IMG/VR virus record: IMGVR_UViG_3300036939_000023
Span: 64,001-128,000 of that record
Source of the DNA: a virus
Length of the DNA stretch: 64,000 nt
Direction: 5' to 3' (one strand)
The first letter of the stretch is position 1, and each line of letters begins with the position of its first letter. Of the stretch, positions 5,220 to 48,650 are shown piece after piece. A program made the position numbers and the translations under genes. Below the pieces are notes generated by a model. It saw only the letters and a list, made by a program, of their open reading frames with translations. It was not told the DNA's origin and ran no database searches.

Positions 5220-7175
5220 TTAAACTGTTACTTTAACTAATTTACCGTCTACTTTAACAACAAAGCTGTTATTAATAGTAGTACTAAATCCTACTCCACT
5301 TAATTGATTATCACTAAATGATACTTGTAGTTTACCTCCTAAGGCTTCAAATACTTTCTTGTGTACTAATAGTTCGTCTTTTAAGTACTCATTAAAGATA
5401 CCTCTAACTGGTTCTGTATTCTTACAATCATCAAGAAAGAAAAATACATGTTTATTACCAATCTGTTGTTGCCAGTAATTAGGACTGTAAGTAATCATAT
5501 TAACTTTGTGGAAAGTATTAGTGTTTAAGTTCCATAGTTTTTTACTGTTAATCTTACTATCTTTAGCTAACTTAATACCCTCTTTAGTAATAGTAAAAGT
5601 AGCTATAACTACATCTTCATTATGTCTAGGACTAGTATTGTAATTAAATTCAAATATCTCTCCTTCATATTCAATCTCTACATTAAATCCTACATCAATA
5701 GATTCTCTACTACAGAACTGATTAACTCCTACACCATAGGCGCCTTCAGGTAGTTTGCAGTTATGTGGGTAAATAATATTTTCTACTGGAGTTCTAGTAG
5801 TTGCATGTCCTCCGTTGGCATCTACATCTAATTGTCCCCCATTAGTACTTCTTTTATTACGATAATAGATATGTTGCTTATCAGGTTGCATTAAATGTAG
5901 ATCTAAATCATCATAGTTATACCATTCTAATGAAATACGTAATTTACCATCTACTTTACCTCCAGCAGCTTTAACCTTCTCTTTTAAACTATCTGTTAAG
6001 TTGTTTCTGTAACACCAACTGTAATTGTTACTCCATTTAAATAAGTTGGTATCGTCATCACTAGTTAATAAACTTACTAAATTACTTTCATGTTTGTTTT
6101 CTAGTAACAACTCAATATTACTACTATTAGGTAGTACTTCAGTAATAAAGTTATCTAAACTAACTTCTTTTAAGTTACTTAGCTTTCTTACATTAACTAT
6201 TGCATCTTTCTTTAATTCATCAAATATATCTAGTTGAGATTTAGTACGATTAACAAACAATACATTATCTACTGTAATATCGTCCTGTACTGCAAATCGT
6301 CTCTGTAGTGCCTGTGAGAGTCCTAGAGCTTCAATAGTCTTCTGAGCATCTTCTACCATCTTTGCAGTTACAAGAGGTTTAGGACGCTTATAGTTAGTAG
6401 GAGCAACTACTTTCTCAAACTTACGAATAGCAGTTTCTAAATCTACATCGTTACTTAAATCAATTAATAAAGTACCAATACTACTATTTCTAATTCTTAA
6501 TAATGCATTAGTAGTTACGGCATAACTCCAGCAATAGTTATCTTTTTGTTTACTAGTTAATTGTTCATAAGTTACTTTATGATCATCAAAGTTATTTAAT
6601 AATGCTTTGAACTCTTGTCCACGATATAAGTTATTCTCAGCAATTAAATCTAATACAGTTCTTACAGCTACAAAACTAAGTTCTTCTAATGATCGTTTAA
6701 ATACTGATTTGTTATCTCTGTACTCACTTTTCTTAGTTTCAATTATATCTTTGTTAGTTTTAAAATTATTAGGTAGTTGATAGTATAAGTGATTCCATTT
6801 AACTTCTTTATTTACATCCCAATTACTATCAGTACCTAACACATTAGTTTCATTAACAAATACATCTTTAATAGGTTTACTAAGTGCTAAGTTCTTTAAT
6901 GCATCTATTACCTTTTGGTACTTGTTATCACCTGCTTCAAAGTCCCAGTAAGTAACGGTTTCATAATTTTTAATTGCAACTAAATTACCATAATTTTTAA
7001 TAAACTGTTTGCAACTATTACAATTAAACTCTTGTCTAACATCTTCAGGAAAGTTGTTTAAATATGTATTCCATAATTCATCTTTATCTACATTAGTTAG
7101 ATACAAGTGAGTTTGGTCTTTAACAAAAAGCTTAAAGTTGGATTGAAATGATTGCTTAAATTCTAAGAAATTCAT
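5220..7175 (-). CDS. large protein with DUF2135/YfaP-like beta domain
   Basis: 651 aa. Residues about 400-540 read RISLEWYNYDDLDLHLMQP, then NGGQLDVDANGG, PVENIIYP and EGAYGVGVNQF. These are the strand and turn motifs of the DUF2135 fold, in which the aspartates probably bind metal. The N-terminal half is helical, with an FNCNSCKQFIKNYGN segment near 49 that hints at a Cys pair. I recall similar phage proteins next to the 124-aa neighbour family. Neither has an established role known to me. No signal peptide, so probably cytoplasmic. Confidence 0.7.
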   Translation of the reverse strand: MNFLEFKQSFQSNFKLFVKDQTHLYLTNVDKDELWNTYLNNFPEDVRQEFNCNSCKQFIKNYGNLVAIKNYETVTYWDFEAGDNKYQKVIDALKNLALSKPIKDVFVNETNVLGTDSNWDVNKEVKWNHLYYQLPNNFKTNKDIIETKKSEYRDNKSVFKRSLEELSFVAVRTVLDLIAENNLYRGQEFKALLNNFDDHKVTYEQLTSKQKDNYCWSYAVTTNALLRIRNSSIGTLLIDLSNDVDLETAIRKFEKVVAPTNYKRPKPLVTAKMVEDAQKTIEALGLSQALQRRFAVQDDITVDNVLFVNRTKSQLDIFDELKKDAIVNVRKLSNLKEVSLDNFITEVLPNSSNIELLLENKHESNLVSLLTSDDDTNLFKWSNNYSWCYRNNLTDSLKEKVKAAGGKVDGKLRISLEWYNYDDLDLHLMQPDKQHIYYRNKRSTNGGQLDVDANGGHATTRTPVENIIYPHNCKLPEGAYGVGVNQFCSRESIDVGFNVEIEYEGEIFEFNYNTSPRHNEDVVIATFTITKEGIKLAKDSKINSKKLWNLNTNTFHKVNMITYSPNYWQQQIGNKHVFFFLDDCKNTEPVRGIFNEYLKDELLVHKKVFEALGGKLQVSFSDNQLSGVGFSTTINNSFVVKVDGKLVKVTV

Positions 7176-14554: not shown

Positions 14555-14899
14555 TTATGACTGAGTAATATTACCAAAACTAATACTTCCACCTACTTTA
14601 ATATTTGAACCAATTACTTGATTAGTAGTACTTACTGTCTCTATTTCTATATTCTTTAATATACTTAAATTTAAATTATTTAAGTAACTTGCATCTAAGA
14701 ACTTTAATTTAGTTACATTATCTACTCTTTTAACTATTACTATTGCTTCTCCATCTTTTCTAACTTCACCTAACACACAATTACTGTTATTATCCATAAG
14801 CTTACTAATCCAAATAATAGAATTAGATATTGTTAATCCTTCTGTATATTGATGTGAACTGTTATTGTCAAAGTAAGCAATTGCTAGTAAGGTATTCAT
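14555..14899 (-). CDS. hypothetical protein, 114 aa
   Basis: Beta-rich sequence (NCVLGEVRKDGEAIVIVKRV; KVGGSISFGNITQS at the C-terminus). Overlaps the end of the primase gene by 32 nt. Unknown. Confidence 0.55.
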   Translation of the reverse strand: MNTLLAIAYFDNNSSHQYTEGLTISNSIIWISKLMDNNSNCVLGEVRKDGEAIVIVKRVDNVTKLKFLDASYLNNLNLSILKNIEIETVSTTNQVIGSNIKVGGSISFGNITQS

Positions 14900-15744
14900 T
14901 AATTAACTCCTGTAAATTTATTTTAGGTCTGAGTTGTAGTAAATCATATATATCGGCACCTTTACTACAATCTTCTTCTATATCTGCTAACTTCCATAAC
15001 TCTTTAATATCAATAGTTAATGTACTAATATTTAACTTCCATGCAATATCTCTAATCTTGTTCTGTTTATTTAAACTAACTAAATCATTATCTAATAACA
15101 ACACTATTGCACTAGGTTGTATTAATTTCAATCCTTCAGTAATTTCTACCTCATTGTATTGTTGAAAGCTAAATGCACTATGACCTTGCTCTGTAATGAC
15201 TTTAAAGGCATTCTTAGCTCCTTCAGGTACTATATGTACTGAACCGTTAAATCGTTGACTACAGAAGGGTTTGAATGTTTCTGAGATACCATACACCCAT
15301 TCATAACTATCTTTGCTGTAATGTTGAGGAAAACACTTTTTCTTACTACTTTTATCTAAGTAATCTATTCTTTGTAATCTTTGAAAGTTACTGTGATAGT
15401 AATAAGTATATTTAGTATTACCAGTAATTACTTCTTCTACTTTAGGTTGCTTAATTACAGTAGCTAACTTTACTGGTTCTGTAATTAATTTAGGTACTAC
15501 ATATTCTTTAACTGTACTAGTGTAAGTAAACCTATTAACATTACTAAACCTATTTAAGCTACCTAAATACTGATAGAGCTTAATTTTGTTATCTTTACTT
15601 CTGTAACAGTTATTAGAATAACAAGCATAAGCTCCAGTATTTTTATTAACTTTGAAATTTATTACCTTTGCATATTGGACAGATGTAACTGTACTTATCT
15701 ACTGCTTCTAACTTATCTAAGTAATCCAGTATATTAAAGCTCAT
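14868..15744 (-). CDS. zinc-finger/TOPRIM DNA primase, split by a +1 frame change
   Basis: ATG 15744 opens MSFNILDYLDKLEAVDKYSY and the first zinc-finger half ICPICKGNKF, then meets TAA two codons later. Skipping one C at 15654 restores KVNKNTGAYACYSNNC, the second zinc half, and an open frame down to 14868, about 291 aa in all. The later part has HIVPEGAKNAF (TOPRIM glutamate), IVLLLDNDLV (D-x-D) and CSKGADIYDLLQL, as in DUF3854/CyRepA-type primases. It should make RNA primers for the phage polymerase. The shift site is AAA TTT CAA, where tRNA-Phe could re-pair from UUU to UUC. Recoding, an indel error and inactivation all remain possible. Confidence 0.75.
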
Positions 15745-20723: not shown

Positions 20724-21455
20724 TTATTTAGCTAACTTAGTTACTTGTTCTTTAAGCTCTACTGCTAATTGTCTAAGTACGTTATAACTAGTACCAAAAT
20801 TAACAATGGACTTATCTACTGGTACACCTAATTCTTCACTAAAACCAACAATAGCTTTAATTACTTTAACATGAGGAGCTTCATCTAATACTTTACCTAT
20901 TAAGTGTCTTGTAAACAATCTATATCCATAGCCACAGAATCTAGCACCACACTTTACCTCTGCTCTAGCTAAATTATCTGTTACATCTCTACTATCTGGA
21001 TTAATTACACTATTCATGCTATTATCCATTAAGGGAAAATCTAAAGCAGTAGTTCTTAATCCAGTTTCTAAATCGATAACATAAGGTTTTACTACTACTC
21101 CTCTATAGCCATAGGTAATCTCATTATTAAGTTCTTGTATCCTAGTGTTTAACTTTTTCTTTTCTTTCCATGCGTCTTTACTATCAGGTACATTATTTAA
21201 AGCTTCAATAGCTTCTTGTTTTTGCTTAGTTAAAAACTCTTTATCACTAACTGTAGATTTAATATAAAATAAGTTGTTACCTTCATCTGTTAATTCATAC
21301 TGAATACTATAGTTAGGATAATGTTGTTTAAAGCCTACATAAAATGCATGTACATCTAAATAATCAAAATTATTTTGAGTTTTAGTATGAAAAATGAAAT
21401 CTGGATCATTATAAGCTGCAAAGTACTTATCTTCAGGTACAAAAAAGTATGTCAT
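20724..21455 (-). CDS. Sak3/DUF1071-like single-strand annealing protein
   Basis: 243 aa. The stretch DFPLMDNSMNSVINPDSRDV then TDNLARAEVKCGARFCGYGY matches by eye the DUF1071/Sak3 core (L-P-V-M-D-x-x-N-x-x-I-x-N-P-D, then M-R-C-L-V-K-A-x-A-x-x-G-L-G). A charged coiled segment lies near 80-115. Members of this family anneal complementary ssDNA and are found in phage recombination systems with an exonuclease and SSB, both present a few kb away. Own promoter and TATAATTATC box 22 nt upstream. Confidence 0.7.
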   Translation of the reverse strand: MTYFFVPEDKYFAAYNDPDFIFHTKTQNNFDYLDVHAFYVGFKQHYPNYSIQYELTDEGNNLFYIKSTVSDKEFLTKQKQEAIEALNNVPDSKDAWKEKKKLNTRIQELNNEITYGYRGVVVKPYVIDLETGLRTTALDFPLMDNSMNSVINPDSRDVTDNLARAEVKCGARFCGYGYRLFTRHLIGKVLDEAPHVKVIKAIVGFSEELGVPVDKSIVNFGTSYNVLRQLAVELKEQVTKLAK

Positions 21456-21474
21456 TTAATCATTTAGTAATAGA

Positions 21475-21484
21475 TAATTATATG
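21475..21484 (-). promoter_or_regulatory. promoter -10 box before annealing-protein gene
   Basis: The minus strand reads ACATATAATTATCTATTAC, 22 nt before ATG 21455, almost identical to the box at 20,710. Confidence 0.65.
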
Positions 21485-21490
21485 TACTAC

Positions 21491-21649
21491 TTAGTTACTT
21501 ATTAAACTATCTAAATAACTAATTTCAATACCACATTTGTTACAATACTTTACTGCTGCATCATACATCTGTTTAGTATGTACTTCATCATTGTTATTTC
21601 TGTAAATCTTAATTACTTGAATATACCAATTTAAGTTAGTTAATGACAT
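21491..21649 (-). CDS. small protein with CxxC, 52 aa
   Basis: MSLTNLNWYIQVIKIYRNNN ... VKYCNKCGIEISYLDS. A single CxxC pair and helical predictions; its start overlaps the 3' end of the RNA ligase gene by 14 nt. Unknown. Confidence 0.5.
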   Translation of the reverse strand: MSLTNLNWYIQVIKIYRNNNDEVHTKQMYDAAVKYCNKCGIEISYLDSLISN

Positions 21650-22604
21650 TTAACCACACACTTCTAATAGTGTTACTACATAACTTATTTAACTGCTTAT
21701 TTACATTCTTGCTAATCACTAACTGATTGTCTTTACTATAATCTTCAATAACATCTTTAATATATAATCCTAACACTTTACCAAAGTCATTACTAGTTAA
21801 CTCTCCTAACTTACTAGTTACTGAGTAAACTCTACTTTCTGTAATTAGTTCAGTTAGTTTAGTTAATACTATATTCTCTTCTTCTGTTAATGTAACTATT
21901 TTAGCTGGAGGTCTACCTTTGTTACTACTTTCTTTAAATTCTGGAGACTTGCATTTAATAATTACTCTATCTCCAGTTCTTAATGTTAAGTAGTTAACTG
22001 GTTTAATTACATAACCTTCTTCATTATTAACTTCTAATTTCTTATAATCATTATTTAGTAGATTAGGTATTAGTGAGTTAAAGGTTAAGTTGTTAGTGCA
22101 GTAAGTTAAAGAGTCTTGTAAATTACCTCTAAAATGTTCTGGCGCTAACTTTAGCTTAGTATAATAAGTTAGTACTTTTAAGACTTTATAGTTAATATAA
22201 TTAAGGTTAACTATATTATCTTCTATCCAAGTAACTAAGATATCAAAAACAATAAATTCTCTGCCACTACAGTATTTAACTCTATTGTTAATACCATCTC
22301 CAATTAACTCTCCATATACTTGAATTTGTTCTATCGGAGATTCATCATTAAATACTTTAAATAAATATCTAATATCTTGACTGTATTTATCTATTACAGG
22401 TTTACAATTAAAGAATGTACTATCAACTATTTGTGTTCTACTTGCTACTTGTACTTCATTACCATCACAAATAAAACTAAAGTTAGCTCCATCTAATTTA
22501 CTAGTTACTACAAATTCTTCATTACCATAACCATGTTCAATGATACTGTTAATGTACTTTTCTCTGTAACTGTTCTCAATACTGCTGTACTTAGTAAATT
22601 GCAT
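21636..22604 (-). CDS. RNA ligase, T4 Rnl2-like
   Basis: 322 aa. Nucleotidyltransferase motifs: SKLDGANFSF with the adenylated lysine near residue 35 (motif I), VASRTQ (Ia), VYGELIGDG (III), EFIVFDIL (IIIa), EGYVIKP (IV), RVIIKCKSPEFKES (V). This order and spacing is that of Rnl2-type ligases, which seal 3'-OH/5'-phosphate RNA nicks. It abuts the polynucleotide kinase gene (3-nt gap), with another ligase beyond, forming an RNA-repair cassette. The C-terminal third is helical as in Rnl2. Confidence 0.88.
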   Translation of the reverse strand: MQFTKYSSIENSYREKYINSIIEHGYGNEEFVVTSKLDGANFSFICDGNEVQVASRTQIVDSTFFNCKPVIDKYSQDIRYLFKVFNDESPIEQIQVYGELIGDGINNRVKYCSGREFIVFDILVTWIEDNIVNLNYINYKVLKVLTYYTKLKLAPEHFRGNLQDSLTYCTNNLTFNSLIPNLLNNDYKKLEVNNEEGYVIKPVNYLTLRTGDRVIIKCKSPEFKESSNKGRPPAKIVTLTEEENIVLTKLTELITESRVYSVTSKLGELTSNDFGKVLGLYIKDVIEDYSKDNQLVISKNVNKQLNKLCSNTIRSVWLNVIN

Positions 22605-25173: not shown

Positions 25174-25246
25174 TTGAGCTACAAGACACCTAAACTATCA
25201 TCAAGTACAAATCTACCTTCAAGCAGCTTAAGTGTCTTTAAATCTA

Positions 25247-25468
25247 CTACAGCTTCATTTGACGAATACTAATTACTTCATCTTTGTGAAAGATAAAGAT
25301 ACCTAGATGTTCAGTAAATACTACTATGTAATCTACTAACTTAATGTAGAAGGCATACTGTAATTTAAGTACACTACCATCTTCATAAGTTAAAGTTACA
25401 CGACTATTAAAGTCTTTGTAAGTTAAGTAACTATCAATAACTTTAGCTGCTTTTTCAATCTTCTTCAT
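25247..25468 (-). CDS. small protein, 73 aa, unknown
   Basis: A basic helix MKKIEKAAKVIDSYLTYKDF precedes strands RVTLTYEDGSVLKLQYAFYI and VDYIVVFTEHLGIFIFHKDE. Unknown. Confidence 0.6.
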   Translation of the reverse strand: MKKIEKAAKVIDSYLTYKDFNSRVTLTYEDGSVLKLQYAFYIKLVDYIVVFTEHLGIFIFHKDEVISIRQMKL

Positions 25469-25477
25469 CGTTCAATC

Positions 25478-25774
25478 CTAATTACTACAACTACTCGTAA
25501 TCACTCGTTGATTAACAGTTACTACTTCTTTAGTAGATACCTTTACTAACTGTTCTTCATATTTAATCCAATTAGCTAAGTAAATAATTAAGTTATCTAC
25601 ACTTCTAATTTATTCATGGTAAGGTAATCTCTTATATTTACCGATAAACAATTCTTCAACTAAATACCAAGAAGCTAATCTAGATAAAGAAGCATCTAGA
25701 ATATTAGTAATTACTGCATATAAATTAGTTAATGTTAAATACAATAATCTTAGAGTATCTAGTACATATAACAT
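25478..25774 (-). pseudogene. 98-codon frame interrupted by an in-frame TAA
   Basis: ATG 25774 opens MLYVLDTLRLLYLTLTNLYA and runs 54 codons to TAA at 25610-25612. The same frame then continues IRSVDNLIIYLANWIKYEEQ... for 43 more codons to 25478. The first 54 codons alone may be a real small gene, or the whole may be one gene broken by a nonsense change. TAA ends many other genes here, so reassignment is unlikely. Confidence 0.45.
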
Positions 25775-25776
25775 AA

Positions 25777-26307
25777 TTAATTCCAATGTAAGTCTAATGA
25801 TTTAATAGCTGTGTATAACCAACACTCTTTAGTTGTTGTAGTACCTATTCTCTTACCTTCTTTAAATCTAACTAAGTCTTTAAGTATTCCTCTTACACTA
25901 TTACTGTTGTCTAAGTATTCATGATACTTAAATAAACCGCTAGGTAATAATCGTAACTTAGCATCTTTATACTCAATTAAGTCTTCTACTGACTGTCTTA
26001 GTAAATTACCATGTGGACTAGGAGCTAAATATAATGTACTAAACCCATTAACTTCCTTATCAAATGAATAAGTTACTTTATCTTTACTTAAGTCATACTC
26101 ACAATCATCAGCTAAATATTGTACATAATCCTCTAACTTAAATAAACAGAAATTAGGTTTAGCAAAGGTTAGTGTTTCTCTTAAAAAATGCCTATAGTAA
26201 TCATCTTGTTTATTTACACTGAATACTAACTTAACTCCAATATCATGCTTACGTTTATGTATTTTAAGTGCATGTATTTTAGTTATATTTAAATCTAATT
26301 TTTTCAT
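25777..26307 (-). CDS. hypothetical protein, 176 aa
   Basis: Start placed at ATG 26307 (MKKLDLNITKIHALKIHKRK), because the GTG at 26322 would leave no leader after the promoter at 26.33 kb. A DNA/RNA-contact-like basic start is followed by beta-rich middle (VKLVFSVNKQDDYYRHFLRE). The downstream YLAPSPHGNLLRQSVEDLIE has no match known to me. Confidence 0.6.
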   Translation of the reverse strand: MKKLDLNITKIHALKIHKRKHDIGVKLVFSVNKQDDYYRHFLRETLTFAKPNFCLFKLEDYVQYLADDCEYDLSKDKVTYSFDKEVNGFSTLYLAPSPHGNLLRQSVEDLIEYKDAKLRLLPSGLFKYHEYLDNSNSVRGILKDLVRFKEGKRIGTTTTKECWLYTAIKSLDLHWN

Positions 26308-48408: not shown

Positions 48409-48617
48409 CTATTCTCCAAACTTATTAGTACCGTCTATTAGGTGGCAAGTAGCATAATTGTAAATACTATTGAACACCCTTTCAGCTTTATCTTTAACTT
48501 CAATAATTTCTCCTGTCCTTAGAGTAATAACTAAGCATTTAGTTTTCTCACCTACTAAAGTGAACTTAATAATAGATGAATAAAAAACAAAAGAACTATC
48601 ATCTATTTGAATAACAT
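48409..48617 (-). pseudogene. frameshifted small gene, about 68 aa if restored
   Basis: AGGAGATTGAAGGCATG opens M-L-F-K then hits TAG. The minus-one frame reads IDDSSFVFYSSIIKFTLVGE, KTKCLVITLRTGEIIEVKDK and so on to TAG at 48409. One extra A in the AAA run would rejoin them. The restored protein (I-D-x-S-S-F ... then strand, T-G-E) resembles small KTSC-like proteins. Assembly error, recoding or decay. Confidence 0.45.
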
Positions 48618-48650
48618 GCCTTCAATCTCCTAAATTGTTTACTGTAGTTT

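What the first reader, a model, noticed from the sequence alone, without database searches (positions are those of the whole stretch)
14868..15744. Primase needs a +1 frame change at a UUU-C slip site
The zinc finger is cut exactly between its two Cys pairs: frame 0 reads C-P-I-C-K-G-N-K-F then stops, and the +1 frame reads K-V-N-K-N-T-G-A-Y-A-C-Y-S-N-N-C. The junction AAA-UUU-CAA has UUU followed by C, where tRNA-Phe can re-pair +1 on UUC, the geometry used in influenza PA-X. A primase is normally essential, so recoding is plausible. An extra base in the assembly is the main alternative. A stop two codons later would give a 32-aa product.
Basis: partly seen in the sequence, partly recalled or inferred. 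Interest (0 to 1): 0.75.

Follow-up and report, generated by a model that had tools for sequence, protein, structure and literature searches.

The report
Frame break in a phage primase
A virus that probably infects cyanobacteria carries its only recognisable DNA primase gene with the reading frame broken by one base; this is most likely a sequencing slip or an ordinary mutation, although an unusually stable RNA hairpin just downstream keeps deliberate ribosome frameshifting possible.

Summary
The frame break is real in this contig. Minus-strand ORF 15744-15646 (32 aa...CPIC) continues in the +1 frame to 14868 (276-aa open frame). A profile built from eight unshifted homologs, window excluded, matches both pieces at abutting positions (1-33, then 34-280). 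All eight homologs, including Pseudanabaena phages PA-SR01 and Pam2, read through this place in one frame. No second primase was found in the 148.6-kb record.

The recoding claim is not shown. For it: UUU-C permits cognate re-pairing, and an RNA hairpin begins 9 nt after the A-site codon (7 of 7118 coding positions score as well). Against it: the A-site codon CAA is common; UUU CAA AG recurs in frame inside the same gene; two unshifted homologs fold better than most synonymous shuffles at the same place; no close relative or reads could be checked; a duplication-type indel creates such a site automatically.

Best reading: a single-base indel, either contig error or natural mutation (0.83), with an evolved +1 frameshift as the minority reading (about 0.13). 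The record's real programmed frameshift appears to be an ordinary -1 site in the gene before the tape measure.

The parts
15646..15744 (-). Frame-0 ORF, 32 aa: N-terminus and first Cys pair (CPIC) of the primase zinc ribbon; start codon with AAGGAAG upstream
   Evidence: matches positions 1-33 of a 306-position profile of 8 homologs, E=6e-4
14868..15698 (-). +1-frame open stretch (276 aa without stop, no ATG/GTG/TTG before 15296): second Cys pair, middle region and TOPRIM-like domain
   Evidence: profile positions 34-280, E=5.1e-21; AlphaFold2 model mean pLDDT 69.8 with weak DnaG/Twinkle/TOPRIM matches
15652..15660 (-). Candidate shift place AAA UUU CAA; UUU-C allows tRNA-Phe to re-pair in the +1 frame
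   Evidence: UUU-C occurs in 2.3% and any same-amino-acid +1 re-pairing in 36% of 7-codon stretches of 79 window ORFs
15565..15642 (-). Predicted RNA hairpin, 15 bp with one 3-nt bulge, inner 8-bp stem; begins 9 nt after the A-site codon
   Evidence: 93 nt MFE -22.2 kcal/mol, z -3.4
15379..15386 (-). Internal control: the same 8 letters UUU CAA AG, in frame, where a shift would wreck the protein
   Evidence: 96-nt downstream fold only -11.0 kcal/mol

Best explanation
The gene is a zinc-ribbon plus TOPRIM-like DNA primase of a cyanophage-like genome whose reading frame is interrupted in this contig by a one-base indel between the two Cys pairs. Shown: the frame break, the homology of both halves, single-frame homologs, and no other primase found in the record. 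Inferred: the indel is either an error in the metagenome contig or a natural loss-of-frame mutation in this genome; the data cannot separate the two (I put error slightly ahead, about 0.5 against 0.33). If translated normally, the product is a useless 32-aa peptide. Low-level slippage at UUU-C might still give traces of full protein without being an evolved signal.
For: 8 of 8 distinct homologs read the region in one frame. The A-site codon CAA is common, 276 of 10,990 codons. UUU CAA occurs in frame 5 times in 79 other ORFs and twice more in this gene's own +1 frame, once as the identical UUU CAA AG, so the short motif alone cannot be strongly shifty. The frame-0 stop lies two codons downstream rather than in the A site. 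The only SD-like AAAGG ends 7 nt before the UUU, not at the short prfB-type spacing (spacing rule recalled). A one-base duplication makes a re-pairing site by itself, and 36% of 7-codon stretches hold one anyway. Three other weak start-less coding runs lie on the coding strand of the window, 4 in 64 kb with the primase, against 5 distinct places (both strands) in about 312 kb of 12 control loci. The TOPRIM DNDxxG glycine, present in 8 of 8 homologs, is Ser here, a hint of relaxed constraint.
Against: The downstream hairpin sits at a plausible spacing and is in the top 0.1-0.6% of coding positions. None of the 7 other in-frame UUU CAA sites has a comparable fold (-9.9 to -14.9 against -23.1 kcal/mol). 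The +1 frame is otherwise intact for 276 codons in a 28.6% GC genome. 40 kb of structural-gene region of the same record shows no unexplained break, so the contig is not generally error-ridden, and the three weak runs score no higher than those in control loci. No second primase was found, so a true loss should be costly.
Confidence: 0.83

Rival explanations
1. Programmed +1 ribosomal frameshifting: tRNA-Phe in the P site moves from UUU to UUC, stimulated by the hairpin 9 nt beyond the A site, so that full-length primase is made at a set low level.
For: Cognate re-pairing site, present by chance in 2.3% of 7-codon stretches; hairpin as good by composition-adjusted z in 7 of 7118 coding positions and by 90-nt MFE in 26 of 7118, 6 of 939 against synonymous-codon shuffles; only primase found in the record; both frames open across the junction.
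Against: All 8 homologs unshifted; common A-site codon, no A-site stop, no close SD; the same UUU CAA AG is read in frame later in the gene; the 32-aa product has no evident use; PA-SR01 and L013, both unshifted, also fold better than all but 2 of 300 synonymous shuffles (96 nt) at the homologous place, so local structure is not specific to the shift; with a 60-nt window the fold is ordinary.
Confidence: 0.13
2. The gene is really two separate products: the 32-aa peptide and an independently started TOPRIM protein (first usual start GTG at 15296, 142 aa).
For: An in-frame GTG exists and the ORF from it spans the TOPRIM-like part.
Against: About 380 nt upstream of that GTG are themselves strongly coding (39.6 log-odds) and homologous to the family, including the second Cys pair. 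No clear SD was seen there by eye.
Confidence: 0.04

Closest known systems
Primases of Pseudanabaena phages PA-SR01 (QIW88552.1, 'hypothetical protein') and Pam2 (UQS95006.1, 'DNA primase')
   Same: CxxC...CxxxxC zinc ribbon, TOPRIM-like EGxK...DND, placed near an exonuclease and an AAA ATPase, upstream of DNA polymerase A and ribonucleotide reductase
   Different: Single reading frame; about 29-31% identity; a TOPRIM glycine present in them is lost in the window
Influenza A PA-X +1 frameshift (UCC_UUU_CGU; PMC3498833, passages read)
   Same: UUU-C P-site re-pairing of tRNA-Phe
   Different: PA-X has the rare CGU in the A site and a conserved UCC before it; here AAA UUU CAA with a common A-site codon and no conservation evidence; bacterial-type ribosome
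Listeria phage PSA capsid/tail +1 frameshifts (PMC5009743, passages read)
   Same: +1 shift in a phage, in one case with a 3' stimulatory pseudoknot
   Different: PSA shifts on a proline codon in structural genes
Tail-assembly-chaperone-type -1 frameshift (present in this same record, L060 about 1258-1993)
   Same: tRNA-Phe slippage on a U run in the same genome (inferred)
   Different: -1 direction, T8C run, gene upstream of the tape-measure-like ORF; ordinary

Membership tests
Zinc-ribbon/TOPRIM phage primase (PA-SR01/Pam2 type) | Both halves match the family profile in order | tested here: met
   profile 1-33 (E=6e-4) and 34-280 (E=5.1e-21), window left out of the profile
Zinc-ribbon/TOPRIM phage primase (PA-SR01/Pam2 type) | Four-Cys zinc ribbon read in one frame | tested here: not met
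   split between Cys pairs by the frame change
Zinc-ribbon/TOPRIM phage primase (PA-SR01/Pam2 type) | TOPRIM motifs (E of EGxK, DND, following G; motif meaning recalled) | tested here: inconclusive
   EGAK and DND kept, the G of DNDxxG (8 of 8 homologs) replaced; Foldseek gives weak DnaG/Twinkle/TOPRIM matches among others
Programmed +1 ribosomal frameshift | P-site tRNA can re-pair in the +1 frame | tested here: met
   UUU-C
Programmed +1 ribosomal frameshift | Slow A site (stop or rare codon) or SD at short spacing | tested here: not met
   CAA, 25 per 1000 codons; stop two codons later; SD-like AAAGG 7 nt away
Programmed +1 ribosomal frameshift | 3' stimulatory structure | tested here: inconclusive
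   hairpin 9 nt beyond the A site, top 0.1-0.6%, but structure also in 2 of 8 unshifted homologs
Programmed +1 ribosomal frameshift | Shift conserved in relatives | tested here: not met
   0 of 8 homologs, all distant; no close relative found
Programmed +1 ribosomal frameshift | Trans-frame protein made | not testable with these tools
   needs mass spectrometry or a reporter

The most novel reading that the evidence does not exclude
The phage makes its only primase through an evolved +1 frameshift at UUU-C stimulated by a downstream hairpin, which caps a replication enzyme at a small fraction of initiated ribosomes. As far as the searches here show, no phage primase expressed this way is described.
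Probability: 0.12. Interest if true: 0.75.

Novelty: not a real feature. Interest (0 to 1): 0.25.

Why it matters
If the recoding were real, it would be a +1 frameshift in an essential replication gene of a phage of bacteria, outside the capsid and tail genes where such shifts are known, and a PA-X-like UUU-C site on bacterial-type ribosomes. As it stands, the case mainly shows how a one-base indel in a metagenome contig can look like a slip site, and which extra evidence (a downstream structure measured against background) is worth a reporter test.

Tried and rejected
Close relatives: no DNA match in the phage collection and no protein match to the window's own piece there. Six exact-word peptide patterns from the window's piece matched 9 viral contigs stretches, none encoding a relative. 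DNA patterns of the hairpin arm and of the CPICKGNKF codons gave 0 hits in viral contigs. Two genome-contig scans gave no relative.

-2 or -1 slippage to reach the same frame was considered by eye: no cognate re-pairing at CAA or AGU; rejected. Transcriptional slippage was rejected because there is no homopolymer longer than 3 at the junction. Translational bypass of the hairpin was rejected because the hairpin encodes the conserved ACYSNNC. A prfB-type SD was rejected on spacing.

Avoidance of UUU CAA in ORFs: 5 seen against 13.4 expected over 79 ORFs, but UUC CAA is also low (1 against 2.1) and UUU CUA too (3 against 9.3); not counted as evidence. Sequence search of solved structures gave nothing useful. 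An RNA fold that begins upstream of the slip site (101 nt) is not unusual (z 0.37), so the hairpin signal depends on the stretch chosen: that stretch and the 60- and 75-nt stretches cut the stem.

Record IMGVR_UViG_2909739949_000002 (52% ribonucleotide reductase identity) has no match to the primase alignment.

Full report
What is there. The window is bases 64,001-128,000 of a 148,569-base virus record, 28.6% GC. On the minus strand a 32-aa ORF (15744-15646) ends CPICKGNKFQS-stop. The next frame continues KVNKNTGAYACYSNNC... without a stop to 14868. The downstream frame has no usual start codon before 15296.

What the gene is. A read-through protein was aligned with PA-SR01, Pam2 and L004 (27-31% identity). 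PA-SR01's protein finds only PA-SR01, Pam2 and, weakly, two Wolbachia phage WO records in the phage collection; Pam2's copy is annotated DNA primase. An alignment search of viral contigs added L007-L013 (L007 and L008 are identical in the 1.1 kb compared; L013 is the same gene as L004), and L016 came in beside a related DNA polymerase. Eight are distinct: PA-SR01, Pam2, L007, L010, L011, L012, L013, L016. All eight are one frame through zinc ribbon and TOPRIM-like part. L009, a near copy of L007, stops 41 codons early close to its contig end; it is not among the eight.

A profile of the eight, without the window, matched the two window pieces best of all window frames: +1-frame piece E=5.1e-21, profile 34-280; frame-0 piece E=6e-4, profile 1-33 of 306. 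Synteny agrees: exonuclease, primase, AAA ATPase and DNA polymerase in the same order as in Pam2, with a ribonucleotide reductase beyond. The window's DNA polymerase is nearest to those of the two Pseudanabaena phages among phage records (35.7% and 34.4%), hence 'cyanophage-like'; the host itself is inferred. A structure model of the +1-frame part (mean pLDDT 69.8, pTM 0.67) has DnaG, Twinkle and TOPRIM proteins among its weak matches, though the top PDB rows by E-value are an unrelated enzyme at TM 0.22-0.23. Viral-library matches with E of 1e-3 or less include several named primase/TOPRIM proteins. Pfam and PHROGs give no match to the +1-frame part at 1e-3; at relaxed limits Toprim_2 is matched by 2 of 4 alignment members and PHROG primases by 2-3 of 4.

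Is there a spare primase? Toprim_2, DnaG zinc-ribbon, Prim-Pol and the family alignment find nothing else in the record. The record may be incomplete, and Toprim_2 and the DnaG model also miss this gene, so this is limited evidence.

Evidence for recoding. (1) UUU followed by C lets tRNA-Phe re-pair; UUU-C occurs in 325 of 14,165 seven-codon stretches (2.3%), any same-amino-acid +1 re-pairing in 5,050 of 14,165 (36%). (2) RNA starting just after the shift place folds unusually well: 93 nt, -22.2 kcal/mol, 1 of 200 dinucleotide shuffles as good. Against synonymous-codon shuffles 0 or 1 of 1000 were as good at 90-108 nt and 4 of 1000 at 120 nt, but 539 and 646 of 1000 at 60 and 75 nt, which cut the stem. 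Against 939 coding positions in 43 window ORFs, 6 reach the same z and 6 the same MFE. Over 7,118 positions, 7 reach the composition-adjusted minimum z; by raw MFE 26 (90 nt) and 42 (108 nt) do. The stem begins 9 nt after the A-site codon. (3) The seven other in-frame UUU CAA sites fold at -9.9 to -14.9 over the same length, against -23.1.

Evidence against. The A-site codon CAA is common (276 of 10,990); the stop is two codons off; no SD at short spacing. PA-X-like sites pair UUU-C with rare CGN codons (PMC3498833, passages read). UUU CAA AG recurs in frame in the same gene. Homologous stretches of PA-SR01 and L013, which need no shift, also beat all but 2 of 300 synonymous shuffles at 96 nt, while the other six do not; at 108 nt these two are 16 and 10 of 300. 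Structure here is therefore not tied to a frame change, and a strong hairpin may itself promote indels or sequencing errors (inference). A duplication-type indel makes its own re-pairing site.

Contig quality. A scan for coding runs before any start codon flags, outside long ORFs, 7 places in the window: 4 on the coding strand (primase 39.6; 25609-25505, 15.4; 48615-48481, 14.8; 25259-25188, 11.0) and 3 on the other strand (11.5 to 12.6). Twelve control loci (about 312 kb distinct) flag 6 rows, 5 distinct places, highest 16.6. The three weak window cases each look like a frame displaced from a nearby ATG or ORF, but they are no stronger than control cases and were not compared with homologs. 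In two further 20-kb stretches of the record, 18 runs are flagged: 16 antisense inside long ORFs, one at a stretch edge, and one a tail-chaperone-type gene before a 2,794-aa tape-measure-like ORF, with a T8C run and a -1 continuation. That last one is read as an ordinary programmed frameshift and serves as a positive control for the scan; T7C/T7G runs in tail genes are reported in PMC3931495 (passages). So the contig is mostly clean, with the primase the one strong break.

Literature. Searches showed listings only, except for papers whose passages I read: PMC5009743, PMC10885494, PMC3498833, PMC5658483, PMC9965538, PMC9915841, PMC3931495. None of the passages describes a frameshifted phage primase. 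PMC9915841 (passages) reports phage genes split relative to relatives, with reads supporting the split and no slip signal, so natural breaks of this sort occur.

Judgement. The break is real in the contig and the gene identity is sound. A rare class of event (evolved +1 shift in a replication gene) competes with a common one (single-base indel). The hairpin raises the rare class but does not outweigh the missing slow A site, the unshifted family and the lack of any second sample. I put evolved recoding at about 0.13 and an indel, error or natural, at 0.83.

Noticed in passing
L060 about 1258-1993 (record bases about 21,258-21,993, outside the window): Tail-chaperone-type gene with a T8C run and a -1 continuation just before a 2,794-aa tape-measure-like ORF: an ordinary programmed frameshift, useful as positive control.
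   Followed up: partly
window 48409-48621, minus strand: 70-aa coding run without a usual start codon early in its frame; an AGGAG and ATG at 48617 lie in another frame that stops after four codons.
   Followed up: partly
window 25179-25801, minus strand: Cluster of short ORFs with two start-less coding runs (25609-25505 and 25259-25188) that look frame-displaced from neighbouring ORFs.
   Followed up: partly
window 15075-15092, minus strand: The TOPRIM-like DND motif is followed by LVS instead of the xxG found in 8 of 8 homologs; divergence or relaxed constraint.
   Followed up: no
window 5220-7175, minus strand: 651-aa protein of PHROG 1735 (unknown function, E=5e-232), 42-44% identical in the listed hits to proteins of many large phages; 60% in contig IMGVR_UViG_3300018984_000002.
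   Followed up: no
L060 about 947-1207: Short ORF resembling a GIY-YIG endonuclease (by eye) directly upstream of the tail-chaperone gene.
   Followed up: no
L009 2944-3807: Near-identical copy of the L007 primase that stops 41 codons early close to its contig end; possibly an assembly error.
   Followed up: no
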